NCBI GenBank assembly: GCA_917880885.1
Contig: OU862927.1
Location: 41,443,571 to 41,507,570 of the forward strand
DNA length: 64,000 bases
Origin: Limnephilus marmoratus
Taxonomy: Eukaryota; Arthropoda; Insecta; Trichoptera; Limnephilidae
Direction of reading: 5' to 3'
Shown here: positions 428 to 28,050 of the stretch, one piece after another
How the letters are laid out: every line of letters begins with the position of its first letter
Numbering within the stretch: the first letter of the stretch is position 1
The notes under the pieces: model-generated
What the model saw: only the letters and a program-made list of their open reading frames with translations
Told to the model about the DNA's origin: nothing
Database searches by the model: none
Translations under genes and position numbers: made by a program

Positions 428-1639
428 TTAAGTGCACAAATTGTGGAGATATTTTTTGAAAGATGTTATACTATTTACAAAAATATCTATGAAACCGTGT
501 ATTTTAGCAAGATCGTTGTATGATCGAGACATTCTAGACATAGGATTAAAATATCCAGTATTATTCGTAAAAATTTCGGTCCAAAATATGTTAAGGGTTC
601 TTGTAGATTTGGGCCTGGCGTATAACTTGATTTGGTTGACTAAGTTACTGTCTACACGATTATTCACAATTTTATAAAGCATTAAGAGGTCATTTATGTT
701 ACGTCTTTTAACTAGACTCTCTAATTTGAAATGTTTAAGTCTTTGTTCGTACCCGTCTAGAAGATGAAATACACCTGATCGGTAAGACAAAATCCGTGTA
801 AATTTTCTTTGGACTGATTCGAGTCTAGATACCTGTGTAATATAATGTGGATTCCAGACTGTTGACCCGTACTCAAGAACACTTCGGATTAAGGAATTGA
901 ATAGAACTATTAGGCTATTAGAATTCTTAAACAGTTTGGTTGATCTTACAATAAAACCAAGTAATTTATTTGATTTATTCACAATGTATTCAATATGTTG
1001 GTTGAAAGTTAGTTTGTTGTCAAATATAATTCCTAAATCTTTTATTGATTCAACTGTTTCCAGATTGTGACCACATATGCTATATGAATAAAGAATTTTG
1101 TTGGTGTTCTTGGTGAAGTTTATAACTTTGCACTTAGCTATATTCAGTTCCATTTCATTGTCAACACACCAGGTAGATATTGTGTTAAGGTCTTCTTGTA
1201 AGAGTTCACAATCATTCATAGATTTAATTGCTTTATATAATTTGAGATCATCAGCATATAGAGAAAAATTACAGCGGAGTTTATATGTAAGGTCGTTGAT
1301 AAAGATTAAGAAATGTAAGGGTCCAAGGTGAGATCCTTGTGGTACGCCCGACGTAACTAATGCTGGGGAAGAGTTAAATCCGTTAACAGTAACTAATTGA
1401 CTTCTATGTGATAAATATGATTCTAACCAACGAAGCAGGTTTCCGTGAATGCCGATTTTATCGAGTTTTTTCATTAAGATAGAGTGACTAACTTTGTCAA
1501 AGGCCTTACTGAAGTCGGTGTACACGGCATCTACTTGTGTTTTATTATTCATTGATTTACACAGAAAGTCCATATACTCAAGTAAATTAGTATTTGTGGA
1601 TCTTTTAGCTACAAAGCCGTGTTGGAAAGGACTTAGTAT
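428..1639 (-). pseudogene. LINE A1 ORF2, 3' part: reverse transcriptase palm to C-terminus
   Basis: This is the C-terminal part of the reverse transcriptase. It begins around the palm motif 'YTDFSKAFDKVSH', continues through 'SGVPQGSHLGP' and the catalytic 'LYADDLKLYK', and ends in the usual thumb and tail region ('LGIIFDNKLTFNQHI'). The palm aspartates needed for polymerisation are present. The segment is in a different frame from the preceding one because A1 lacks 7 nt near 1641-1645 that the sister copy A2 retains at the matching point (about 48385). The protein would therefore be truncated before the catalytic palm. Confidence 0.85.
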
Positions 1640-2865
1640 ATGTGGTTAAAAATGGTTTTATATACAATGGACTCGAATATTTTGCCAAAACAAGATAAAA
1701 GGCTGATAGGACGGTAGTTAGTTACATCATTTTTACTGCCAGATTTGTGGATCGGAATTACGTGGGCAACCTTCCACAGATCCGGAAATACCCCATCGTT
1801 CAGACTTTTGGTGAATATTTTGTGTAATGGTATTGCAAGCTGATCTGCACAATTTCGAATAAATAGTGGAGGAATTCCATCTGGGCCGGAACCCTTATTG
1901 ATATCAACAGTGTTTAATTTCGCTTTGACCTCGTCTAACGTTATTTTGATATGAGACAGTGGATAATTATAGAGTGGGGATGAAAGTTTAGAGTCACTTT
2001 TAGAATTGGATGGTGAGTTAAAAACAGAAGAAAAGTAAGTAGATAACAGTTCACATGTATCTTCTCCATTTGTTGCTGATTTGTCATGGAGATGCATGAT
2101 TTTGGGGAGAGAATTAGAAATTCTTTTCGAATTAATGAGGGTTGAAAGATTTTTGATGCTGTTAGGGAGAGAATTTTCTATTGAATCTACATAGGCTTTA
2201 AGGCATGTACGTATGGATACTTTTACTCTAGCCCTCAAGATAGAAAAACTGTCATAGTCACATTGATTTTTGTATTTTTTCCATTTCTTTCGAAACTTTT
2301 CTTTTTCTCTGAGTTGGTGGATCAGAACACTGCTAAACCAAATTGGAAACTTATTATTCCTGTTTCTTAAGCGCGGAGTGTGTTTTTCAATTGATAGCCA
2401 TAACAAGTTATAAAAATGTAGTAGGGAGTCATTACAATTTATCGTGTTAAGATCGCCCCAGTTATTAAGTGATAACATTTCATTGCATTTATTATAATCC
2501 GTTTTTTTGAAGTTATATTTGATGTGATCTGGATTGGTGGATAGGGGTCTGTATTTGGACATTAAAAAATCAAATTCAATGGGAGGATGATAAGAGTCAA
2601 TTTTTGATAGCACATGTGAAGCAATTTGAATGTTGAGGTTATGATTGGAAAACACTAAATCTAAAATTCGACCTATGTTGTTAGAGATATGATTGAATTG
2701 CTTAAGTCCAGTAAAATTTTGAAAGTCTAGTAGAGATATTGATTTTTGGCTATTATGTAAGACTGGTCTGGTGTGCGTTACATTGACAGTTGGTGAGTAT
2801 TGAATAGATGGCACATTAAAATCACCCATTATTATTGTTATATCCTCTGATGAAAGGTTATTATA
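1633..2865 (-). pseudogene. LINE A1 ORF2, middle part: end of endonuclease and start of reverse transcriptase
   Basis: The segment starts with the endonuclease motif 'MGDFNV' (2829 downward). It runs through the linker ('WFSSVLIHQLREKEKFRKK') to the first reverse transcriptase motifs 'KGSGPDGIPP' and 'NYRPISLLSCFGKIFE', and stops at the frameshift. Upstream it is cut by the MITE at 2866-3249. Removing the MITE and one TA target copy joins this frame to the segment starting at 3677, so the interruption came after the element had inserted. Confidence 0.85.
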
Positions 2866-3249
2866 CAGGGTGTAACAGGACGTACCCGAGGGATTTTAAC
2901 CAGCGATTCCTGAGCATATTTGGAGTAAAAAATGTAAATGAAATTTTGGTCTCCGGTGACTTTTTTTGACAACTTTTTTTTTTTTTTTCAATTTTTTTTT
3001 CTTCAAAATCAAACAAAAAAAGAATTCTTCCGCATGTCGTCACTGGTCACTCAGCCGGGTGTCCGACGAACCCCTTACCCCTCCTCCAACTGTTCAACAA
3101 CTACCATTTTTTTATGTTTTTGTAGAAAAAAAAAAAAAAAAAAACATCAAAAATGTCACCGGAGACCAAAATTTCATTTACATTTTTTACTCCATATGAT
3201 GACAGGAATCGATGGTTAAAATCCCTCGGGTACGTTCTGTTACACCCTG
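2866..3249. mobile_element. MITE of Tc1/mariner type, TA duplication, inserted in LINE A1
   Basis: A 384-bp element with nearly symmetrical arms of about 97 bp. The ends are CAGGGTGTAAC and its complement, and each arm carries a 'GGTCTCCGGTGAC' inner border around a T/A homopolymer centre. It is flanked by TA on both sides (2864-2865 and 3250-3251). The host ORF becomes continuous if exactly one TA is kept, whereas a 4-bp TATA reading gives an in-frame stop. A TA duplication is the hallmark of the Tc1/mariner superfamily. No transposase is encoded. Confidence 0.85.
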
Positions 3250-3251
3250 TA

Positions 3252-3677
3252 TATCGTTTGACACTTTTCAAAAAAATCTGTGAGATTTTCGATTGGTATA
3301 TCTGGAGGCAAATACGCCAAACATAAATTAATTGATTGTCTGGATGTTTCATGTAATTTAAATTTAATCCATAAATCTTCTGTAGATTTTGAGATGTGTG
3401 CTGAGACTAAAAAAGATGTCATTTCTTTCTTAATGGCTATTAGAATACCACCACCTGATTTTTTAAGAGAACTCGTTATGTCCCTATCGCGTCTATATAT
3501 AATATAACGATCGTCTACTATTTCATGGTCATAGATTGTGGAATCTAACCATGTTTCTGTAAAACAAATTAAATCATAATTGCAGCTGAGCACTTCGCAG
3601 TATAAATTATTTAATTTACTTTTTAAACCACGTATATTTTGATAATAAAATGTTATTGCCGTTTTGTTAGAATCCAT
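3252..3677 (-). pseudogene. LINE A1 ORF2, 5' part: apurinic-type endonuclease domain
   Basis: The frame starts at ATG 3677-3675 and shows the N-terminal apurinic/apyrimidinic endonuclease signature 'YYQNIRGLKSKLN', then 'CFTETWL' with the catalytic Glu, and 'GGGILIAI'. This domain nicks the target to start target-primed reverse transcription. The start overlaps the end of the spacer ORF (stop at 3669-3667) by 11 bases. The frame runs into the MITE at 3249. Confidence 0.85.
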
Positions 3678-4347
3678 TTTGAAAGTATAATATATTAAGC
3701 ATTATTAAATACGTTTTTATGTAAAATTGATATGGAAATAATTTATTGAAAAGTAAGTAATTATGCTTTGAAAGGGGGCAATTATGAACATCATAAGTTT
3801 TGGTTTGTTTTTGGTAAATGATTTTATCTATGGTATCGGTTGTCATTATTGTTGACAGCTCTAGGTTTATAAATAGTAAACAATATACTGAGTATTCAGT
3901 TGTTACATAAAAGTATGTTATCATTGTGCAATTATTTGTAATAGGTTGCGATCGTTTTTTATATTTAATAGATTGCGATAGTACATAAAAATAATAATGA
4001 ATTTTTAAAGATAGTACATAAAAATAATAATGAATTTTTAATGAATAATTTTGTTCAAAAGTTAGCAACCGGTTTTTGGGATATTTGAAATACCCTAATG
4101 ATTCGTTAATTACTACAATGGAGAAATCGTGCATATAATAAATATTTTGTTTTTGTTTTAAAGAATAATTATGTTCAGAAGTTAACAACAGTTTTTTGTG
4201 ATAATTGAAACACTCTAATAATTCTTTAATTACCACAATGCAGATATCGTGAATATAATAAAGATAAATACAACATTCCAAAAGGTTAACTTTTAAGTAA
4301 CTTGTTTGTGGGAAGTTTTTAAGTAATTTTAATGAATTTAATTTCAT
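3667..4347 (-). CDS. Spacer ORF between LINE A1 ORF1 and ORF2, 226 codons
   Basis: An uninterrupted frame fills the whole interval between ORF1 and ORF2. Its ATG (4347-4345) overlaps the ORF1 stop in an ATGA junction, and its stop overlaps the ORF2 start by 11 bases. The product is rich in Tyr, Ile, Leu and Lys, with no domain I recognise. It contains two diverged tandem units of about 44 residues (around 4150-4260 and 4020-4135) and a short direct repeat ('SLKIHYYFYVL' twice). Family B has only 66 bp between its ORFs. Most differences between the two tandem units change amino acids, which argues against strong protein constraint. It may be a third cistron or chance reading of an AT-rich spacer. 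Confidence 0.3.
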   Translation of the reverse strand: MKLNSLKLLKNFPQTSYLKVNLLECCIYLYYIHDICIVVIKELLECFNYHKKLLLTSEHNYSLKQKQNIYYMHDFSIVVINESLGYFKYPKNRLLTFEQNYSLKIHYYFYVLSLKIHYYFYVLSQSIKYKKRSQPITNNCTMITYFYVTTEYSVYCLLFINLELSTIMTTDTIDKIIYQKQTKTYDVHNCPLSKHNYLLFNKLFPYQFYIKTYLIMLNILYFQNGF

Positions 4348-5090
4348 AAAGGGACTGCAGACCTGGTAGGTGAATTTTGGGTGGACTTCAATGTTGAGAG
4401 TTTGTTGACATCTTCTTGTTCATGAATAAGTATTATGGGGGTTGAATCGCTTATTCGAGTGAAAATTTTACCATTTCTAACCCAGCAATAGCGAATTTTA
4501 CCAGCGCTTCTTATGTCGCGACATTGCTTCAGCAAAAGTTGGTTTTTTGAGGTTAGATGGTCGTTAATATATATTTTACTGGTTCCAGGGAGCTGTAATT
4601 CGGAAGCAAGCATCCCTTTCCTCTTTCTTATAGCAGAAATAAGTTCATCCTTAAGGTACCTGCGAGTTAATTTGACGACAATATTCCTCGGTCTTCCATT
4701 TTTTGCATCACGGTTTGTCCTGGGGGCAATCCTGCTGGCGAAATCCACTTCTTGTCGGGTTATATTGCATCCAGCTGTGGCGCCTATCTTGGAGAGAATG
4801 TCGTACACATTTTCATTGTTGGTTTCAGGAATACCGCTTATGATTACATTGTTAGAACGATTAAATTGATCGTTTATTTCAATTTGTTTTTCCAATTGGA
4901 ACACTTTTTTTTTGAGCTGATTAATTTCTTCTTTGAATTCATTTTTTATGACGTCGACTATATTGTTTTTAAACTCTTCAAATGTTTTCTCTAGAAAATG
5001 AGTTTTGAAGTCTTCAAACTTGTTGTCTAAAAGTTGTAGAAGTTCCGTATTGAGGTTAGTGCCGGACTTAGAGTTTGATCGCGTTGTCAT
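4344..5090 (-). CDS. LINE A1 ORF1 protein (coiled coil, nucleic-acid binding)
   Basis: A 248-residue ORF1. The N-terminal ~90 residues are charged and heptad-like ('FKEEINQLKKKVFQLEKQI'), predicting a coiled coil. A middle domain follows with 'NNVIISGIPE' and 'GRPRNIVVKLTRR', resembling the RNA-binding and C-terminal domains of L1-type ORF1 proteins. Such proteins coat the element's RNA and act as chaperones. The homologous ORF1 of family B (27818-27051) has the same layout. The frame is intact, unlike ORF2. The start is the first ATG; the 5' UTR lies to about 5170. Confidence 0.8.
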   Translation of the reverse strand: MTTRSNSKSGTNLNTELLQLLDNKFEDFKTHFLEKTFEEFKNNIVDVIKNEFKEEINQLKKKVFQLEKQIEINDQFNRSNNVIISGIPETNNENVYDILSKIGATAGCNITRQEVDFASRIAPRTNRDAKNGRPRNIVVKLTRRYLKDELISAIRKRKGMLASELQLPGTSKIYINDHLTSKNQLLLKQCRDIRSAGKIRYCWVRNGKIFTRISDSTPIILIHEQEDVNKLSTLKSTQNSPTRSAVPL

Positions 5091-5192
5091 TGTTATTTAG
5101 TGTAATATTTTTATAATTATAACTTAATAAATTGATTGCAATTTTATTATTTTAATAAAAAATAGGGGAGAGCAAAAATTTATATTTTGGTA

Positions 5193-5556: not shown

Positions 5557-7167
5557 TAACAAAATAGAAATATCCATATAGAGAAAGGCAAAATTGTAGA
5601 TGGAGACGAGGGTATATTTAGAAATTTCAAAATTCAAAGTATGAAAGGGGATGAGGTTTATAAATATTTAGGATACCCGCAATCGAATAGATTAGATCAC
5701 ACTAGTATTAAAAATGATATTAGGATTAAATTTCAAACTAGGATCAGAAAAATTTTAAAATGCAATCTATCTGCTAAAAATTTAGTAAAAGCAATAAATA
5801 CTTGGGCAATACCTCTACTAACGTACTCATTTGGCATAATTAAATGGTCCAATACAGATTTAGATAGTTTAGAACGATTAATTAGAACTACGTTAACAAA
5901 ATTTAATTGCCATCATCCAAATTCAGCTATAGAACGAATTAATTTACCTAGAAATTTAGGAGGTAGAGGTGTAGTCAAAATAACATCTTTGAAACACAAT
6001 CAGGTAGAAATGCTTAGAAATTTTTTCCATAGGAAAGCTAATAGCTCAGAAATGCACAAAATAATTTGCAAGGCAGATAGAAATATTACACCTTTAAATT
6101 TATATGACGAGAATGCCAACATTCTTATAAATACTAACCAGGAATTATTAGATTCCTGGTCAAATAAAATTATTCACGCAAAACACTTCAATTATCTCAA
6201 CCAAACGTATGTTGACAAACTTTCGTCAAACAAATGGTTGAGTATTGGAGAGTTGAGCGCAGAAATAGAAGGATTTATGCTTGCAATTCAAGATAGAGTC
6301 ATTAATACTAAAAATTATAGAAAGCATATAATCAAAGATATAAATCAAATTGATGATTTATGTAGAAAATGTTTGGCTTTTCCCGAAACTATAGAACATA
6401 TTATATCGGGATGTTCTATATCAGCGCCTTCCGAGTATACATTTAGGCACAATCAGGTTTTAAAAATAATTCACCAAAGTTTGGTAATTAAACATAACTT
6501 GATTGATTGCCGTAATGTAGTACCTTATTATGAATATGAACCAAATTCATTTATAGAAAATGAATTTTATAAAATATATTATGATAAAACTATACTAACA
6601 GACAGAACAATTAGTCATAATAGACCTGATATAGTTTTACATGACAAAATTAAAAAAATAACTTATATCATTGATGTAGCTATTCCAAATTCCTGTAATA
6701 TTCAAAAAACTGTTTCTGAAAAAATTAGAAAATACACAGATTTAGGAAATGAGATTAAAAGAATTTGGCATTCTCGGACTATAAAAATATTACCATTTGT
6801 TATTTCGGCCACTGGCATAATACCTAGGAATCTGATTCAAAATTTAAGCATATTAGATTTGTCAAAGAATTTGTATATAAAAATGCAAAAAGCAGTAATT
6901 TTAAATACATGTAGGATTACAAAAGATTTTTTAAATATTTATATTGAGGGATCAGTAGGATTTATAGGTTCAATTAGAAATGCCACAGAGCCGAACCCTC
7001 TGATATGAAAATATCTGGAGTCGGTGAATTATATTCCCATTTGGTCTCTAGTAGGTTGACATGTTGTTCTTGTATTGTTTTGTATTTATAATACTTATAT
7101 AGTGCAATTGCATAGATTCACTAGATGATCATTTGGGGAAGTGTATGAAAGGGTTTAGTTTTTTCCT

Positions 7168-8876: not shown

Positions 8877-9682
8877 GTTATGGAAGCATCGCCCCGCGCA
8901 CCGCCCTGGGGAAAGCAGTCACCATGGGGTACGCAGTCCTCGGCATCCCTCTTACCCTCCTCTACCTCAGTGTCGTGGGCACCCTGCTATCCAGACTAGC
9001 CCGCAGCGTCTTCTCCAGGGCTTTGTGCTGCTGCCTCTGTACCAAGTGCGGGTACTGCTGCTATGACGAGAAACGCATGGCAGACAAGGAACGAAAGAAG
9101 AAACAGCACAGACAACACACAGAACATCAAACTCACCAGCTGATGCAAGAACCATACTATGTCAGATCTCCTTCAGGAACTATTATATCAGCATCGCAAG
9201 CAAATAGGAACACCATGTCTTCTCCAATCAAAGAAAAGCATTCTTCGGGTTTCCTCAAGGATTGCGACTCTTTGAGCTGCGGTGATAACGATTCTAGAAC
9301 ATCTTTTAGAGGTCTGTCTATCCTTGCTCCAGTCTTACTCTGTTTCATCATGATAGCAGCGTACATAGTCATGGGAGGCTTTATACTCTACAAGCTTGAA
9401 AACTGGAAGCTTTTAGATGGGATATACTTCTGTTTCATGAGTTTGAGCACTATTGGATTTGGCGATCTGGTTCCAGGATCCAGTCCTCATTATAGAAAGC
9501 GTGATTCAAATGGAACAGTCTGGTTTTGTTCTATTTACATAATTTCTGGACTAGCTTTAACTGCTATGTGCTTCAACGTTCTCCACGACGAGATCGTTCA
9601 CCGCTTGAAACATCAAGAAAGGATGTTGAGGGCTTCGGTCCAGCGAGCACTGAAGCAGGATAATGCCAGACAAATGTCCTGA
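8877..9682 (+). CDS. Two-pore-domain potassium channel (K2P), 3' exon up to the in-frame TGA
   Basis: The exon follows a polypyrimidine tract and AG at 8875-8876 and starts in phase 1 inside the first pore filter, completing the first Gly of 'GYGSIAPRT'. In order it shows M2 ('MGYAVLGIPLTLLYLSVVG'), a cysteine-rich patch ('CCCLCTKCGYCC') at the start of a ~100-residue cytosolic loop, M3 ('LCFIMIAAYIVMGGFILYK'), the second pore filter 'STIGFGDLVPG', M4 ('GLALTAMCFNVLHDEI') and a basic C-tail. K2P channels carry background K+ leak current at the plasma membrane. M1, the extracellular cap and the first pore helix must lie on exons left of the window. The frame stops at TGA 9680-9682, but see 9683-9964. 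Confidence 0.9.
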
Positions 9683-9964
9683 CAATTCAACGAGGAAGTA
9701 TCCGCAATAAAAACGGACCGGATTTACCAGAGGAATCTGACTGAAGAGACTCTGCTCAGTTCAGCGAATTCTAACTCTGTTATCTTCAACACACCAGATT
9801 CGGATATGGACACCATGATGGTGATGGGGAAGGAAGTCATCACGAGGGAACCGAAGGCTACGCCGCTTCCGGAGATGCTGAACCACGTGACCGGAACCAT
9901 GTCGCGCTCGGGAGTTTACACGGTTAAAGAGGAACCGGAAGTGGAAGACGTTACGGAAATGTAA
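9683..9964 (+). CDS. In-frame extension of the K2P C-terminal tail beyond TGA
   Basis: Directly after TGA the same frame stays open for 93 codons and ends at TAA 9962-9964. Composition matches the exon and not the AT-rich DNA that follows, and the peptide is acidic and Ser/Thr-rich ('TPDSDMDTMM', 'VKEEPEVEDVTEM'), as in a regulatory channel tail. No splice donor-acceptor pair could skip only the TGA. Explanations are stop readthrough (the stop is followed by C, a weak context), a C-to-T change in an Arg codon (CGA to TGA) making a recent null or polymorphic allele, RNA editing, or a sequencing error. Confidence 0.65.
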   Translation, partial: QFNEEVSAIKTDRIYQRNLTEETLLSSANSNSVIFNTPDSDMDTMMVMGKEVITREPKATPLPEMLNHVTGTMSRSGVYTVKEEPEVEDVTEM

Positions 9965-10134
9965 AGCAACTATGACTGGTTCATTGTATGATATTACTAT
10001 GGAGTGTTGAGTTAACTTTTAGGTACCGCTGAGAATGTACTTACAAGTTAAGCCTTTATCTTTCTAGTTATCAAAGTTCTAATGATGGTAAAGTGTGAAC
10101 AATATGTTAGTGCTAAAATTTAAGTAAAATAAAT
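9965..10134 (+). other. Probable K2P 3' untranslated region
   Basis: Base composition falls to AT-rich right after the TAA. An AATAAA-like signal is present near 10127-10133 ('AAAATAAATTATTG'), suggesting a possible cleavage site. No frame of interest. Confidence 0.45.
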
Positions 10135-10395
10135 TATTGAACAGTGACAAATTGTGGCCAAAACGGTAAAAGTAGCACCAAAATGTGGACAAAATTTTTA
10201 GCGCAAATTTTGTGAACCTGATGGAATAGCGCAAAATTATTGACAAAATGGTACTTTGCCATCTTGTGGACAAAATGATAAAGTGCCAAAATGCTACTGT
10301 GTCGAAATCTGATCAAATTCCAGTGTCAAAATATGGTTTCGCGCAAAAGTACGATGCCAAAATGGGAAAAATGGTATGGTGCCAAAACATGTGCG
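10135..10395. repeat. Degenerate repeat of a GTGCCAAAATG-like motif
   Basis: Variants of 'GTG(C/A)CAAAATG' or 'GxxCAAAATG' occur about a dozen times in 260 bp at irregular spacing (for example 10172, 10248, 10278, 10359, 10378). Short frames on either strand here reflect the repeat and not a gene. It is a diverged short tandem repeat next to the K2P 3' UTR. Confidence 0.55.
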
Positions 10396-11640
10396 AAATC
10401 AATCTTTAGAACGTAAATAATTATTGTAAAATTAATTTATTATGCAATATGCATTGAAAGCTTCAAAAGGGTAATTTAAAAGTTTTTACCAATGAAAAAA
10501 ATCCTTAAAAAGTGTTTTATCTGGTTCTTTAATATTAAACTTGAATGACATTTTTTTACAAAAGGACAGAAAAAGTCCGCAAAGAAAATTATTAGTTTAA
10601 TTCTGCTTAATTTTGATTTTCATTACTAAGGTAGACATTTGTCAGAATTTTCATGGAAATGTTTTTCAATTAATGTTTTCCAGAGTAATAAAGTTTTTTT
10701 TTACAAATAGGACCCGTCCGATTATTTCCAATAACTACTAGTGTTTTTCTATGAGAGTAAAACCTTATTAAATTCTCCAAGCAAATAATGTATTTTTCAA
10801 AGCATTATTAATTCCCAAGTAACGAAGATTAAATGTTATTTGTCATCAATTCTTGATGGTGGAGCGACCGTATTCATTCAAAATTAATTATTTGTGATGA
10901 GTAAAATATTATTTTCTCAACTTTTCTGAAAGAATATAATATTTTAATATAAGTTAGTAGATAATAAATTGAAAAAATTTAAAATGTAGTGATTAGTGTA
11001 AATACGTAGGTTTTATTACTGCGGTTAATACTTGATGTGAGGTGTTGGTGTTGCGTATATTGTATTTAGTACTTAAATTAGTTTTAAAGATTGCCAGACT
11101 AAATTTAACAATATATTTATTAAGCTTAATAATATATCGAAATAATTAGAAGAGGTGTGGAATTATAATCAAGAAAGCTTTGATGGGGCTTGAAAAAGAA
11201 GGAAGTATCAAATAAAAATATTTATGGTTAAATGTGAAAATTCAACTTGTGAATAGATTCCAGAAATTTCAAGTATATTAATTTGTTTTCTCGCCGGTAA
11301 AACCGGCTACTGCATTACTGTTATTTTTAAATTTTTGATTTTTTTAAATCGTGACATGTCTATTGCAGGTATTGATAGTTCGTTTGTAAGAGAAGTCGCT
11401 TAAGACCCCGCATTCCGATTTTCTTCCGACATAAAAGTAATTACATCAAATATATAAAATTCCCTCAACAAAAAAAATCGCAGTCTGCTCCTAAAATTAA
11501 AAAAATCTGCTTCTGTAACATGCCGTGGGTATGAAAAAAATCACAGCGTTTCTTTAAAAAAGCTAGGTAACTCGGATGTTTTGAGATTATTGCTTAAAAA
11601 TGTCGTCTTTTATTAAATATATTCGCGACAGTCGCTAACG
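10396..11640. other. AT-rich intergenic sequence
   Basis: No gene, RNA or transposon end is recognisable. A small hairpin (GCCGGTAAAACCGGC) lies near 11293-11307, and the block GTCGCTTA(A/G)GACCCC near 11395-11410 resembles a block just inside the left end of the piggyBac-like element at 15039. Confidence 0.4.
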
Positions 11641-11719
11641 ACTGTTAAATATTTTTTTTTTTAAATATAGGTGCAGTCCATCTATCATTTGCATTTGCAT
11701 GTCTCTCTTTCAAACGATA

Positions 11720-12232
11720 GTGCGCCCCACGGTTGAATTTGGCAGCCACCTCTGGTTTGGAGCTCCAAAATACCTGAAAAATACGCGCAGAAACGGGCGG
11801 TCCGTTTGATAGATTTTCCCATCTTAACAGACGGATTGCAATCTTTAGAGCACAGGCGTCGGGTGGGAATGCTATCCTTGTTCTACCGGTATTACAATGG
11901 AAGATGCTCCGAGGAACTAGCATCATTGATCCCTTCGGCACCGGTGAATAGTCGGGAAACACGCCAAACGCGTGCCCAACATTTGTACAAGGTTGACATT
12001 TGTCACATGAGAACGGGTCGTTTCTTCGACTCGTTCTTATGTTCAACAGCTCGGCTGTGGAATGATTTTCCGGCCTCTGTGTTTTCGCCTTCCTACAACA
12101 TGGGTCTCTTCAAGACCAATGTTCATTCCTTCCTCTCCTCAAAAAGACCCTCCGCACAGCATCCCAGATGTCATAGGCCCTGAGGGAAATTGTTTTCCTC
12201 AAGGCCTCCTGTGTGGAGTTAATATAAAAAAA
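11720..12232 (+). mobile_element. LINE D tail fragment
   Basis: A Jockey-type LINE C-terminus. The segment from 11726 matches the tail of D1 ('RPTVEFGSHLW', 'GAPKY'). The frame at 11806-12183 carries 'RETRQTRAQHLY', 'TGRFFDSFLCSTARLWND' and 'YNMGLFKTNVHSFL'. It ends in a 3' UTR terminating 'CTCCTGTGTGGAGTTAAT' plus poly(A). It is 5' truncated, with a frameshift near 11800. The same tail occurs on the minus strand at 13712-14105 and 15775-16062. Confidence 0.8.
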
Positions 12233-21839: not shown

Positions 21840-22774
21840 GGTCCTTACATATGAAATTGTCGTTTTGTCGTACTGGCAACTTTGATCTCAAATATCTTCT
21901 CTTTGGTTAGGAATTCCAAATTCAAATTTATACAGCTATTTACTCATGTATTTGTGTTTCGAAAATAAAAATTCATTTGTTTTTTCCTTAATTCTTTCTT
22001 TTCTTTGCGTCACTTAGTTTACAAAATGGAAAACTTGAAATATCGCATCGTTTACGAGTACGAGTTCCACCGTGGCACCAGTGCTGCAGAAACGGCTCGA
22101 AGGATTAATGATGTGTATGGCGACGGTGCCGCAAAAGAAAACAAAATTTAGTTCCAACGTTTTCGTTCTAGAAATTTCGACCTGCAGAACAAGCCCCGTG
22201 GACGGCCGGAGACCAAAGTTGATAATGAAGAATTGTAGGCTATTGTAGAAGCAGATCCATCGCAAACTACGTCCGAGTTAGCTGCAGGCTGCGGTGTTAG
22301 TTATAAAACTGCTTTAACCCACTTGAAACAAAATTGGGAAGGTGAAAAAGCTTGAAAGGTGGGTACCTCACGAATTGAGTGAAGCAAATCAACAAACGCG
22401 CGTTAGAACGCTAGACCACACACTGCACAACAGACGGCTACCAAATTAGAGGAGCTTCAATTGGAATATTTAAGACATCCACCGTACTCTCCGAACCTTG
22501 CTCCAACAGATTACCATTTTTTTCGAAATTTGGATAACTTCTTGCAAGGGAAAAAATTCAACTCCGATGGGGCAGTCCAAACAGCCTTCAAAGATTTTAA
22601 TGATTCCCGTTCGAATGGTTTTTTTATTAAAGGGATCGATGAACTACCCATGAGATGGCAAAAGTGCATAGATAGCAATGGTACATACTTTGATTAAATA
22701 AATATATTATAATTAAAAAAAAAATCGACTTTATGTTCCTCCCATACAAAACGCCAATTTCATATGTAAGGACC
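21840..22774 (+). mobile_element. Mariner element, internally deleted
   Basis: 935 bp with terminal inverted repeats of about 28 bp ('GGTCCTTACATATGAAATTG' and its inverse at 22755-22774). Coding sequence matches the two ends of a mariner-family transposase but is shorter than the usual ~1.3 kb element, so the catalytic centre is partly lost. The expected flanking TA pair is not clear, suggesting age or mutation at the ends. Confidence 0.85.
22026..22697 (+). pseudogene. Mariner transposase, disrupted
   Basis: From ATG 22026 the frame gives the N-terminal helix-turn-helix region ('YEFHRGTSAAETARRINDVY', 'KPRGRPETKVDNE', 'DPSQTTSELAAG') with in-frame stops at about 22149 and 22236. The C-terminal part (22461-22697) holds 'HPPYSPNLAPTDYHFF', which carries the third acidic residue of the DDD triad, and 'RWQKCIDSNGTYF' at the end. 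The segment with the first two aspartates is missing between about 22350 and 22450. Not functional. Confidence 0.85.
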
Positions 22775-24119: not shown

Positions 24120-26984
24120 TCATGAAACATCAGAGAAATACTCTTTTATGTACCCCTTATATTTGGTAGGTTCGGAATTGAAAATGTCCACCTTGGATAA
24201 TATGCTATTGTAACTATTGCATAGTCTGTTCAGACAAGAATTTTGCTTGCAGTTTGTCTTGCATTGATCAACCCTGAACAGGACAGAAGAGCGTGTTGTA
24301 CGCGCAGGTACATTAAATTGAATTTTATTTAGCAACTCTGGGCATTGAATATTATTGTTAACTAATTTATACAGGAATATTGCATCCTTATGATGCCTTC
24401 GTACACTCAATGAATCAATTTTAAAGTATGAGGCTGCCTCTGCATAATTATTAAATCTTACATATGACTTGTAACAAAGATATTTGAGGAATTTGTTTTG
24501 AATTGCTTCAATTTTGTTCGTATGGATTTTATAAAATGGAGACCAAACAACTGACGCGAACTCCAAATGACTTCGTACGTAGGCAAAGTAGAGTTGCTTA
24601 ATGACGTTGATACTATTAAAAAGTTTTGTGTTTCTCATGATAAAACCTAACATTTTAGCAGCTTTATTTGTGATTTGTTGTATATGAAGGTTGTATTGTA
24701 GTTTACTATCAAGGGTTATTCCAAGATCACGAATATCTGAGACTGTTGCAATGTTGTTGTTATTTATAGAATAATTAAATAATGTTTTATTTTTATTTCT
24801 TGAAAAGGTAATATGATGACATTTTGAGACATTTAGAAATAGTTGATTTTGTTGGCAATAGGTAAATATATTGTTTAAATCATGTTGTAAATTGACGCAA
24901 TCGTTTAGACTTTTTATTGGCTTGTATAGCTTGGCATCATCAGCAAATAATTCTATTTCAGAGTATTTAACAACATTGACCAAATCATTGATATATAAAA
25001 TGAAAAATAATGGTCCGAGATGTGAACCCTGTTGGATCCCAGAGGAAATTTCACTGAAATCTGATTCGAAACCCTTTATTGCTACTGCCTGTGATCTCTT
25101 GAGTATATAAGATGTAACCCAACGAAATAAATTACCACGTATACCTAATGACCAAAGTTTTCTGAGTAATAGTTTTTGATTAATTTTATCAAATGCTTTG
25201 GCAAAGTCTGTATAAATGATATCTACTTGAGTGCGGTTGTCCATGTGATCGACAATGAATTCAGTAAGAAGAACGAGGTTACTTTCCACATTTCTGCCTT
25301 TTGTAAAACCGTGTTGCTTTGTTGTAATGATGTGATTCAGTTGTGGGCTTATATATTTGTAAACAATTTTTTCCATTAACTTACTGAATATTGTTAGTTT
25401 TGAAATCGGCCGATAGTTTTTAACATTATTTTTTTCACCATTTTTGTGGATTGGTGTTACATAGGCTCTTTTCCATATTTCAGGTACCGTGCCTTCGTTC
25501 ATTGATTTATTATATATAATGCAGAGAGGTTTTGCAAGTGTTTCCGCGCAATTAACTATAAAGTATGAGGGAATGTCATCACACCCCGCGCTTGTGTTTA
25601 TGTCAAGAGCTTTTATTTCTTTTAAGATTATTTCTCGTGTGAATTTGACCGTGCTGATATTTATGTTATTTGTGTTTTCTGGTATGTCGAAGTCTGGTAG
25701 GTTATTATCGTTTATGTAAACTGATTGGAAATATTCCATGAAAATATTGCATATGTCTTGGCCATTTTCTGCTTTTTTGTCATCTAGGTGCATCGTCCTT
25801 GGAAGAGACGATTGTGTTTTTTTCATGTTATTAAAATGATTCCAGAAGAGTTTAGGATTACCATTTATGCTATTTTCAGCAGTATGTATATAATTAATGT
25901 AGAGTTGTTGTGCGATACGTTTTTGTCTAGATCTTAAGAGAGAAAACGTTTGATAGTCACGTGGATTTTGAAATTTTTTAAAATTTTTATGGTATTTATT
26001 TTTCTCTTTAATTATTTTTATGAGCGATGATGTGTACCACGGCGGATAATTACAATTTTTAGCTGGTTTAGTTGGTACATAATTTATTTTAATGTTGTTT
26101 AATATGTTGTAGAAGACGTCAGTTGCGGGTTGAGTATTCAAATGGTTAAGTTTATGATCCCAATCAATTTCGTTTAATTTTGTGTTTATTATTGAATATT
26201 CCGCTTTTCTGTATAGTAATATTTGTTTTGCGTTAGTTTTCAGGTTTTTATTTATTTTTTTAATAGGAATTGAAATTAGCAGTGTTTTATGATAAATATC
26301 TTCTGGTACTAATGAGATATTATTGTGCCTAATTTTCAGTGGTATGTTGCTTACAGCTAAGTCGAGAATGCGATTATTTATACTATTACTCTGAGAGTTA
26401 TATTGTTTCAGATTATTAAATGATAAAAATTGTGTAAAGTTCAAATGGGCGGGATTCAATGAATTGATTGGTTCAGTACACATATAATCACAGTTCTCAT
26501 TAATTGGTAGCCAATGTAAGTGAGATAGGTTGTAATCTCCTACCAAAATGAAACTATCATTATTGTTGTTATCTGTCATAATTTGTGATGTTTTGTTTAT
26601 GTGAGACATAATATTTATGAGGTGTTTACTGTCAGGTGCAATATATGAAGTGCATATGTGAATTTTTTTACCGGGAAGTGAAATCGTTACCCATATGTCT
26701 TCCGCCTCTGATCCCCATTCTATTTTTTGTTCAGAAATTAATTTATTTTTTACTGCGATTAAAACTCCACCACCGCGATTCTGTTTGAGATTATGGTAAT
26801 CTCTATCTCTTCTGTAAACATGGTATCTTGGATCGAAAAGTTCCTCATTAAATATTGAATTGTTAAGCCATGTTTCAGTGAGACATATAATGTCATAGTT
26901 GTTTAATAGTACATTTTGAAGAAAGGTGTTCGTTTTAGTTCTGAGGCCTCTTAAGTTTTGATAATATAATTCTAGAGATTCCAT
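24120..26984 (-). CDS. LINE B1 ORF2: endonuclease-reverse transcriptase, 954 residues
   Basis: N-terminal apurinic-type endonuclease (residues ~1-230): 'YYQNLRGLRTKTN', 'CLTETWL', 'YIAPDSKHL', 'LVGDYNLSHLHW'. A linker follows with 'YPPWYTSSLIKIIKEKNKYH'. The reverse transcriptase (about 465-740) shows 'SAGCDDIPSYF', 'NYRPISKLTIFSKLMEKIVY', 'IYTDFAKAFDKI', 'GIQQGSHLGPLFFILYIND' and the catalytic 'LFADDAKLYK' near residue 686. The usual Pro of the 'PQG' motif is Gln. The C-terminal thumb-like tail has 'LGITLDSKLQYNLHI' and a weak cysteine cluster ('CKTNCKQNSC'). The enzyme nicks DNA and copies its own RNA at the nick. Full length for the family. Confidence 0.92.
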   Translation of the reverse strand: MESLELYYQNLRGLRTKTNTFLQNVLLNNYDIICLTETWLNNSIFNEELFDPRYHVYRRDRDYHNLKQNRGGGVLIAVKNKLISEQKIEWGSEAEDIWVTISLPGKKIHICTSYIAPDSKHLINIMSHINKTSQIMTDNNNNDSFILVGDYNLSHLHWLPINENCDYMCTEPINSLNPAHLNFTQFLSFNNLKQYNSQSNSINNRILDLAVSNIPLKIRHNNISLVPEDIYHKTLLISIPIKKINKNLKTNAKQILLYRKAEYSIINTKLNEIDWDHKLNHLNTQPATDVFYNILNNIKINYVPTKPAKNCNYPPWYTSSLIKIIKEKNKYHKNFKKFQNPRDYQTFSLLRSRQKRIAQQLYINYIHTAENSINGNPKLFWNHFNNMKKTQSSLPRTMHLDDKKAENGQDICNIFMEYFQSVYINDNNLPDFDIPENTNNINISTVKFTREIILKEIKALDINTSAGCDDIPSYFIVNCAETLAKPLCIIYNKSMNEGTVPEIWKRAYVTPIHKNGEKNNVKNYRPISKLTIFSKLMEKIVYKYISPQLNHIITTKQHGFTKGRNVESNLVLLTEFIVDHMDNRTQVDIIYTDFAKAFDKINQKLLLRKLWSLGIRGNLFRWVTSYILKRSQAVAIKGFESDFSEISSGIQQGSHLGPLFFILYINDLVNVVKYSEIELFADDAKLYKPIKSLNDCVNLQHDLNNIFTYCQQNQLFLNVSKCHHITFSRNKNKTLFNYSINNNNIATVSDIRDLGITLDSKLQYNLHIQQITNKAAKMLGFIMRNTKLFNSINVIKQLYFAYVRSHLEFASVVWSPFYKIHTNKIEAIQNKFLKYLCYKSYVRFNNYAEAASYFKIDSLSVRRHHKDAIFLYKLVNNNIQCPELLNKIQFNVPARTTRSSVLFRVDQCKTNCKQNSCLNRLCNSYNSILSKVDIFNSEPTKYKGYIKEYFSDVS

Positions 26985-27050
26985 TTTAATGATGCAATAA
27001 GTTAATATGATGGTTCTTATGTTAATATGAATATGGTTAATATGAATGTT

Positions 27051-27818
27051 CTAAGCGTTATTGATGGAAATATTGTATTTTTTTAGTTTTTCTAGGTCGA
27101 TAAATGAGTTTATGCAATAGTGATCTGAGTTTTCGTTTAGTCTTACATAAATTTTACAGTTTTTTATCCAGCAAAATTTATATTTGTTAATTTTGGTGAA
27201 CTCTCTGACCTGTTTGTAGAGTATTTTGTTTTTGTGTGTTAAATGTTCATTAATATAGATCCTTTGTTTTCCATTCCAGTTTATATCCTCTGCTGTTAGG
27301 CCCCTTCTCGTTCGGATTGCTGCCATGATATCATCTTTTTGTTTTCTGCACTTCAGTTTAACGATAATATTTCGCGGTCTTCCTTCGATCTTCTCCTTGG
27401 GGGTTACTCGGGTGGCGTATTCAATTTCTTCAGGGCTTACTATTTTTAATTCAGAATAGATGCTTTTGATAATCTCCGTCAGGTTTTCTTGTTTTTTTTC
27501 TGGTATTCCAATGATCTCTATGTTATTTATGCGTGCGTGTTGTTCGTTAGCGTCCAATTGTTTTTGTAATTCGTTAAATTCCCTTTGAATTACGGCGTTT
27601 TGTTCCAGACTTTTTTCAAGGTTGTTGTTTTTTTTCGTGTCAATTTTTTTTTCAAGAGTTAATATTTTATTTTTTAATTCTTCGATTTCTTCTTTATACT
27701 CGTTCCTCACGATTTCCAGAAATTGCACCTTAAATTCTTCAAACTTTTTATCAAGGAGTTGGAGGAGTTGTATGTCTGTATTATTTAGTGCAGTCTTTGC
27801 AGTTGCTCTTGTAGTCAT
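27051..27818 (-). CDS. LINE B1 ORF1 protein
   Basis: 255 residues. A long N-terminal coiled coil (residues ~25-100; 'YKEEIEELKNKILTLEKKI', 'QREFNELQKQLDANEQHA') precedes an RNA-binding-like domain ('RINNIEIIGIPE', 'EIEYATRV', 'GRPRNIIVKLKCRKQKDDI') and a C-terminal domain ('KIYVRLNENSDHY'). It likely forms trimers that package the element RNA. Layout equals ORF1 of family A, at low sequence identity. Start chosen at the first ATG, which aligns with the 'MTTR' start of family A. Confidence 0.88.
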   Translation of the reverse strand: MTTRATAKTALNNTDIQLLQLLDKKFEEFKVQFLEIVRNEYKEEIEELKNKILTLEKKIDTKKNNNLEKSLEQNAVIQREFNELQKQLDANEQHARINNIEIIGIPEKKQENLTEIIKSIYSELKIVSPEEIEYATRVTPKEKIEGRPRNIIVKLKCRKQKDDIMAAIRTRRGLTAEDINWNGKQRIYINEHLTHKNKILYKQVREFTKINKYKFCWIKNCKIYVRLNENSDHYCINSFIDLEKLKKYNISINNA

Positions 27819-28050
27819 ATTGGCACGTAATATTAGCTAATATAACTGATATAACAACACTTCACTATTATAAACTTATTGAAATATAGATATTTAGGTT
27901 TTAGCTTGAACTTTTGTTTTATTTTGTGAAATTTCTAGAGAGAATTAAAAACACGACAGCTGTCATTGAATGTTATTGTTGTAAAAAAGTGTCGTGGATA
28001 AATGATTAAATTATTTTGAATTTAAATTATTATTTGTTTACATGACAATT

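What the first reader, a model, noticed from the sequence alone, without database searches (positions are those of the whole stretch)
9680..9964. K2P channel frame continues 93 codons past a TGA
Seen: the exon frame hits TGA (followed by CAA), then stays open for 93 codons with coding-like composition to a TAA, after which the DNA turns AT-rich. Known: insect genes show frequent readthrough, mostly at TGA followed by C. Inference: a readthrough isoform would add an acidic, Ser/Thr-rich regulatory tail. The alternative is a CGA-to-TGA change (one transition), which would be a truncating allele or an error.
Basis: partly seen in the sequence, partly recalled or inferred. Interest (0 to 1): 0.78.

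Follow-up and report, generated by a model that had tools for sequence, protein, structure and literature searches.

The report
Conserved readthrough of insect potassium channel
An insect potassium-channel gene carries a probably leaky stop signal followed by 93 more protein letters that other insects also keep, so cells very probably make both a short and a long version of the channel.

Summary
The last coding exon of a two-pore (K2P) potassium channel ends at TGA (9680-9682, context TCC TGA CAA TTC). The frame then stays open for 93 coding-like codons to TAA (9962-9964). Related sequences favour stop-codon readthrough over a CGA-to-TGA mutation. Of 120 listed relatives, 95 end in Ser at about this place and 17 carry a homologous tail (NLTEETLLS ... 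GVYTVxEE ... TEM); the only two that can be read across the stop have W there, none Arg. A profile of 16 tails from other species finds the window tail at E=1.3e-9; the best shuffled control scores 0.14. In the same genome two K2P paralogues have the same TCC TGA CAR context with 104 and 170 further open codons; four other K2P genes do not. No good splice donor, SECIS match or significant RNA hairpin was found at the site. Best explanation: conserved programmed UGA readthrough adding a probably disordered, acidic tail whose C-terminus may be a docking motif. Translation itself is not shown. The phenomenon is known and abundant in insects; my searches listed no paper on a K2P channel, but supplementary gene lists could not be read.

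The parts
8877..9679 (+). last coding exon of a K2P channel up to the first stop (from the first pore filter through M4 to the C-terminus ...NARQMS); the first codon is split across the intron
   Evidence: 63-69% identity to named lepidopteran K2P proteins, Pfam Ion_trans_2 E=2.4e-24; exon 1 around G000:C21:41377501-41378139 ends ...ACAATAG|GTGAGT, in phase
9680..9682 (+). UGA stop codon inferred to be leaky, context TCC TGA CAA TTC
   Evidence: same TCC TGA CAR in two paralogues of the genome
9683..9961 (+). readthrough extension, 93 codons: QFNEEV...IYQRNLTEETLLSS...LPEMLNHV...GVYTVKEEPEVEDVTEM
   Evidence: profile of 16 other insects' tails finds it at E=1.3e-9; apart from its own ORF copy the next best of 11,111 is a shuffled control at 0.14
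9962..9964 (+). second, final stop TAA
9950..9961 (+). extreme C-terminus -VTEM, candidate C-terminal docking (PDZ class I-like) motif
   Evidence: 13 of 17 tail-bearing relatives end in M, 11 of 17 in T-x-M (NTEM, NTAM, TTPM, VTPM, HTVM); three flies end in I and one protein in EDTA; the PDZ reading is recalled, not tested

Best explanation
An insect K2P channel gene with two known coding exons uses conserved programmed stop-codon readthrough. Most ribosomes stop at UGA 9680 and make the short channel ending ...ARQMS. A fraction decode UGA (context UCC UGA CAA UUC, close to the plant-virus-type CARYYA context) with a near-cognate tRNA and add 93 residues: a probably disordered, acidic, Ser/Thr-rich tail with conserved islands NLTEETLLS and GVYTVxEE and a conserved extreme C-terminus (TEM) that probably serves as a docking or localisation motif. 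Shown: the open frame, tail homology across insects, a shared protein end, the same context in two paralogues. Inferred: actual readthrough, its level, the residue inserted, the disorder and the function of the tail.
For: Frame and coordinates. Chance of the open frame is low. 17 of 120 listed relatives carry the tail and 95 of 120 end in Ser. P0062 and P0023 (Logan proteins) run through with W exactly at the stop: NMTS-W-QFPPIKSALYHRNLTEETLLS and LQRS-W-RDESGNFTEES; BLAST of the window tail to these tails gives E=1.9e-7 and 9.9e-7 (a search against three tails only). HMM of 16 other tails against the window tail: E=1.3e-9, best of 10,000 shuffles 0.14. Paralogue L002 (58% identity over 251 residues): TCC TGA CAA TTC + 104 codons. 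Paralogue L003 (41% over 105 residues): TCC TGA CAG CGG + 170 codons; 29 of its 120 listed relatives carry tail motifs (EYFVPRSVSEFNL...KMVTFED...DVFM), and seven of these read W after Ser at the stop (P0132, P0136, P0140, P0211, P0229, P0230, P0243). Four other K2P genes have 2, 17, 1 and 9 open codons. Best splice donor in the 119 bases before the TGA scores 0.5 bits on a hand-made matrix, against 8.2 for the top 1% of GTs in the window. Exon 1 is intact.
Against: No translation data. That W equals TGA in the Logan and similar proteins is inferred from how their gene caller must have worked; no insect DNA outside this genome could be read (the viral and prokaryote collections gave no relative). 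Most tail-bearing models (15 of 17) reach the tail by dropping the stretch around the stop (e.g. P0035, P0055, P0107), so splicing is not formally excluded in those species. No stable RNA hairpin follows the TGA (z 0.12 and -0.17). The tail of L002 was not among the best hits of the tail profile and shares little more than LPEML with the window tail (E=0.056).
Confidence: 0.88

Rival explanations
1. Alternative splicing: a small in-frame intron spanning the stop is removed in some transcripts, so the tail is joined without readthrough, as several automatic gene models show.
For: 15 of 17 tail-bearing relatives (P0035, P0055, P0073, P0107, P0112, P0114 and others) lack the stop region but carry the tail. 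24 frame-keeping GT..AG pairs of 45 bases or more can be drawn in the window.
Against: All six donors within 119 bases upstream are weak (best 0.5 bits; top-5% cutoff 5.8). The residues between the stop and the island NLTEETLLS are themselves partly conserved: QF directly after the stop in the window, L002 and P0062, and Y-Q/H-R directly before N-L/M-TEE in the window, P0062 and P0055, unlike an intron. In the beetle the skipped piece would be only about 54 bases (inferred by comparing P0035 with P0062).
Confidence: 0.07
2. Nonsense mutation, truncating allele or assembly error (CGA to TGA).
For: A single transition would suffice; the tail looks coding.
Against: Relatives end at the same place, and P0002 (one of 201 residues different, so probably another allele or individual) also ends ...ARQMS. 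Near-identical records of the paralogues (P0066, 4 of 273 different; P0124, 3 of 272) also end at their TGA. Paralogues L002 and L003 have TGA at the same site.
Confidence: 0.01
3. UGA recoded as selenocysteine, or A-to-I editing of UGA to UGG.
For: Both would use UGA at a fixed place.
Against: No SECIS match at E<=5 in 9500-12000 or in L002 (insect SECIS can be missed by Rfam). No redox context; the site is in a cytoplasmic tail (established K2P topology). No significant duplex 3' of the stop. Lepidopteran relatives carry the same arrangement, and selenoprotein loss is reported for some insect genomes (start of the abstract of PMC2500217 seen in a search listing).
Confidence: 0.02
4. The downstream ORF is translated separately or is a decayed former coding end without present function.
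For: It contains in-frame ATG codons (from DMDTMM).
Against: The conserved island NLTEETLLS and the QF after the stop lie upstream of the first internal ATG of the tail, in the same frame as the channel.
Confidence: 0.02

Closest known systems
Programmed stop-codon readthrough of Drosophila/Anopheles genes (kel, hdc, Syn, dfr; 328 genes annotated in FlyBase in 2015)
   Same: In-frame second ORF after a UGA, low-complexity tail with conserved islands, final stop (passages of PMC4528330; passages and section 17 of PMC5100048); UGA followed by C as the commonest leaky context is recalled
   Different: Those lists rest on dipteran alignments. Here the tail can be followed from a caddisfly-like insect to moths, beetles, Hymenoptera, flies, locusts and (weakly) a leafhopper, and the gene is a K2P channel
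Plant-virus type (TMV-like) CARYYA readthrough context and dfr UAG CAAUCA
   Same: CAA UUC after the stop matches CARYYA at 5 of 6 positions (CARYYA recalled; the dfr context CAA UCA and its likeness to plant viruses from passages of PMC13170385)
   Different: Stop is UGA, not UAG; base +9 is C; no stem-loop found here
Insect K2P channels named KCNK18-like / TWiK-7 / TWiK-18
   Same: 63-69% identity to annotated moth and butterfly proteins, matching exon boundary, same short C-terminus
   Different: The listed proteins mostly stop at the first stop (95 of 120 end in Ser) or skip it (15 of 120)

Membership tests
programmed stop-codon readthrough (insect type) | long in-frame ORF directly after the stop, unlikely by chance | tested here: met
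   93 codons; 65 of 7825 stops and 9 of 20,000 simulations reach that
programmed stop-codon readthrough (insect type) | leaky context (UGA C) | tested here: met
   TCC TGA CAA TTC; same class in two paralogues. Leakiness itself not measured
programmed stop-codon readthrough (insect type) | tail conserved as protein across species | tested here: met
   HMM E=1.3e-9 against 10,000 shuffles, best 0.14; 17 of 120 listed relatives carry it
programmed stop-codon readthrough (insect type) | stop codon itself conserved, no sense substitution | tested here: inconclusive
   protein ends agree and two W reads sit at the site, but no DNA of other species was available
programmed stop-codon readthrough (insect type) | not explained by splicing | tested here: inconclusive
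   no good donor near the stop in the window; 15 of 17 tail-bearing models elsewhere leave the stop region out
programmed stop-codon readthrough (insect type) | 3' RNA stem-loop (optional, not defining; only some cases have it) | tested here: not met
   z 0.12 and -0.17
programmed stop-codon readthrough (insect type) | extended protein made in cells | not testable with these tools
   needs ribosome profiling, peptides or reporters
K2P potassium channel | two pore loops with GYG/GFG filters in one subunit | tested here: met
   TTIG|YGS across the exon junction and TIGFGD; Ion_trans_2 in 2 stretches

The most novel reading that the evidence does not exclude
A whole clade of insect K2P channels (at least two deeply split subfamilies, three genes in this genome) shares an ancient Ser-UGA-C readthrough switch that adds a conserved C-terminal docking end (T-x-M or D-V-F-M), so translation termination efficiency sets what a leak channel binds. 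The switch would predate the split of the subfamilies and of the insect orders.
Probability: 0.45. Interest if true: 0.72.

Novelty: new member of a known kind. Interest (0 to 1): 0.56.

Why it matters
It gives a clear, testable case in which translation termination, not splicing, could set the cytoplasmic tail of a leak potassium channel. The same stop context recurs in three paralogues, and the tails of two of them are conserved across insect orders, including beetles and Hymenoptera; a genome-wide test did not find abundant readthrough in Tribolium and Apis, perhaps because of incomplete annotation (PMC5100048 section 17). It also suggests that automatic annotation truncates these channels or leaves out a piece to bridge the stop.

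Tried and rejected
A tail-only homology search in region mode had 27 candidates and none at E<=1: the tail is too short and diverged for a 5.8-billion-sequence database, so tails were collected from whole-protein hits instead. Looking for insect DNA in the viral and prokaryote genome collections gave no relatives. RNA hairpins after the stop: none in the window; L002 weak (z -1.15 and -1.84; 20 and 7 of 200 shuffles fold as well). SECIS: none. The tail of paralogue L002 was not among the best hits of the tail profile, so for L002 the case rests on context and open frame. Naming the Drosophila orthologue failed: searches with recalled CG numbers gave nothing on readthrough. Literature searches listed no paper that by title or abstract start reports readthrough of a K2P channel (some lists were capped: 15 of 82, 10 of 13, 10 of 11). 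Word finds in PMC5100048 and PMC3840789 gave no 'potassium' or 'ion channel'; PMC4528330, PMC4999894 and PMC13170385 no 'potassium'. My first count of the residue after the stop (8 Gln of 9) used too narrow a pattern; a second look found three more W reads and the count is now 8 of 12.

Full report
OBSERVATION. In the window the exon frame of a potassium channel ends at TGA 9680-9682 followed by CAA, remains open for 93 codons and ends at TAA 9962-9964. The tail has 50% G+C with 62% at third positions; the 279 bases after the TAA have 32%. Only 65 of 7825 stops in the six frames of the window are followed by so long an open run (19 of 2256 TGAs), many by eye within transposon ORFs, and 9 of 20,000 sequences simulated from the 3' flank stay open.

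THE GENE. The exon is Ion_trans_2-positive and its closest named relatives are moth and butterfly channels called KCNK18-like or TWiK-18. Exon 1 lies about 65 kb upstream of the window (match at G000:C21:41377501-41378139), has an ATG, is open and ends at a strong-looking donor ACAATAG|GTGAGT in phase with 8877, giving the first filter TIGYGS. In a tree of 46 rows the window gene, P0002 and P0001 fall beside all 11 lepidopteran-type rows (14-row clade 99/98; window+P0002 98/92; with P0001 89/78). With a 1.63-Gb genome this suggests a caddisfly; the species is not established.

RELATIVES. Of 274 hits, 120 were listed and the C-termini of all 120 were printed and inspected. 95 end in Ser (for example ...PEFLHRS...DPYNMTS...DPFALTS...RQMS); in the 94 that have the motif AMCF/AMSF the end lies 33-72 residues after it, median 43, by eye the window's stop site. 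17 carry a tail with GVYTVxEE or similar (the pattern was written to include P0105, whose likeness is weak), and 8 are neither (cut, chimaeric or ending otherwise). A few of the 120 belong to the L002 paralogue group. P0002, one residue of 201 different from the window, ends at the same place. Two proteins predicted from Logan contigs run through the site with W: P0062 (NMTS-W-QFPPIKSALYHRNLTEETLLSTPETP...GVYTVPELPENDENSEDNTEM) and P0023 (LQRS-W-RDESGNFTEES...SVYTLKEEKEPERTTPM). I infer that their gene caller read TGA as Trp. Support for this: in the second subfamily P0136, P0211, P0230 and P0243 also continue with W just after the DVFM (or AFM) end, where 15 of 29 tail-bearing relatives finish exactly in DVFM or NVFM. 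The other 15 models (P0035, P0055, P0073, P0107, P0114 ...) reach the tail by leaving out the stretch around the stop, which is what an ab initio predictor does to avoid a stop.

TEST OF THE TAIL. A profile of 16 tails from other species, the window's excluded, was run against 11,111 sequences: three own tails, 10,000 shuffles of the window and L002 tails, and 1108 stop-to-stop ORFs of at least 30 residues of the window. The window tail (and its own ORF copy) scored E=1.3e-9; the next was a shuffle at 0.14. The tail start points were chosen by me and one row (P0083) includes upstream residues; P0077, the seventeenth tail, was not used. The tails of paralogues L002 and L003 were not among the 12 hits printed. 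BLAST of the window tail to the two W-read tails gives 1.9e-7 and 9.9e-7, and 0.056 to the L002 tail.

PARALOGUES. The window exon has 15 matches in the genome. The eight best became loci, two of them pieces of one gene; for the resulting seven K2P genes the frame could be followed to a stop. Three share the context TCC TGA CAR and a long extension: the window gene (93 codons), L002 at C21:43796928 (58% identity, 104 codons) and L003 at C21:21692753 (41% over 105 residues, 170 codons). Four do not: 2, 17, 1 and 9 open codons after TAA, TGA, TAG and TAA; that these are the true ends of those genes was not tested. Near-identical public records of L002 and L003 (P0066, P0124) end at the same TGA. 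For L003 a protein search (209 hits, 120 listed; ends printed) shows 79 ending in Ser, 29 with tail motifs (a loose pattern; P0207 is doubtful) and 12 others. The tail islands (FQRxxPxRRS, EYFVPRSVSEFNL, REKMVTFED, DVFM) appear, not all in every one, in lice, a termite, a stick insect, thrips, a water bug, Hymenoptera, beetles, moths and midges. Seven of the 29 read S-W across the stop: P0132, P0136, P0140, P0211, P0229, P0230, P0243.

STOP CONTEXT. Over both subfamilies 12 sequences can be read past the stop: the three own genes, P0062, P0023 and the seven just named. The next residue is Gln in 8 (three own genes, P0062, P0136, P0140, P0229, P0230), Leu in 2 (P0211, P0243), His in 1 (P0132) and Arg in 1 (P0023). 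Gln and His codons begin with C, so base +4 is C in 9 of 12 (if W is TGA) and can be C in the other three.

ALTERNATIVES. Splicing around the stop: 24 frame-keeping GT..AG pairs exist, but the best donor scores 0.5 bits on a hand-made consensus matrix (top 1% of GTs in the window 8.2), and residues on both sides of the stop region are conserved between the window and P0062. Mutation or error is contradicted by relatives and paralogues. Selenocysteine: no SECIS match. Editing to UGG cannot be excluded without RNA. No hairpin was found, so the linear context is the likely driver. Published work on dfr shows that UGA gives the highest readthrough of the three stops and that +4 to +9 CAAUCA, like plant-virus contexts, is required but not sufficient there (passages of PMC13170385); on that analogy a further element may exist here too.

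FUNCTION. Inferred: a low share of channels carries an acidic, probably disordered tail. The extreme C-terminus is well kept (T-x-M in 11 of 17 tails of the window family; DVFM or NVFM in 15 of 29 of the L003 family), which suggests a C-terminal ligand such as a PDZ motif (recalled; methionine is not the commonest last residue). PDZ recognition sites have been proposed for Drosophila and yeast readthrough extensions in general (one passage of PMC4999894). In L003 the string K-M-V-T-F also resembles a PP1 docking motif (recalled, untested).

NOVELTY. Readthrough in insects is known and abundant (passages of PMC4528330 and PMC5100048, section 17 of the latter read). Searches for readthrough with potassium channel, TWiK, two-pore, K2P or sandman listed no paper on K2P readthrough by title or abstract start; supplements were not available. 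I file it as a new member of a known kind, with an unusually deep and family-wide distribution.

Noticed in passing
L002:1501-2637 (G000:C21:43796928 onward): Paralogous K2P gene, 58% identical, also TCC TGA CAA TTC followed by 104 open codons
   Followed up: yes
L003:916-2244 minus strand (G000:C21:21692753 region): Third K2P gene with TCC TGA CAG CGG and a 170-codon tail; the tail islands EYFVPRSVSEFNL and KMVTFED are found across insects
   Followed up: partly
L003 about 913-915 minus strand; P0136, P0211, P0230, P0243: A second TGA CAA follows the DVFM end (6 more codons here); in P0211 and P0243 the residues after it are alike (WREGGW[DN]E), a possible double readthrough in some insects
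   Followed up: no
window 24120-27836 minus strand: Two long adjacent ORFs (976 and 261 aa) that look, by eye, like a non-LTR retrotransposon
   Followed up: no
window 428-5096 minus strand and 5560-7008 plus strand: Further ORFs that by eye look like broken non-LTR elements, upstream of the channel exon and inside its long intron
   Followed up: no
window 22407-22697: ORF that by eye resembles a mariner-like transposase fragment
   Followed up: no
window 10150-10400: Repeated 'caaaatg'-like words in the 3' flank of the channel gene, after the TAA (by eye)
   Followed up: no
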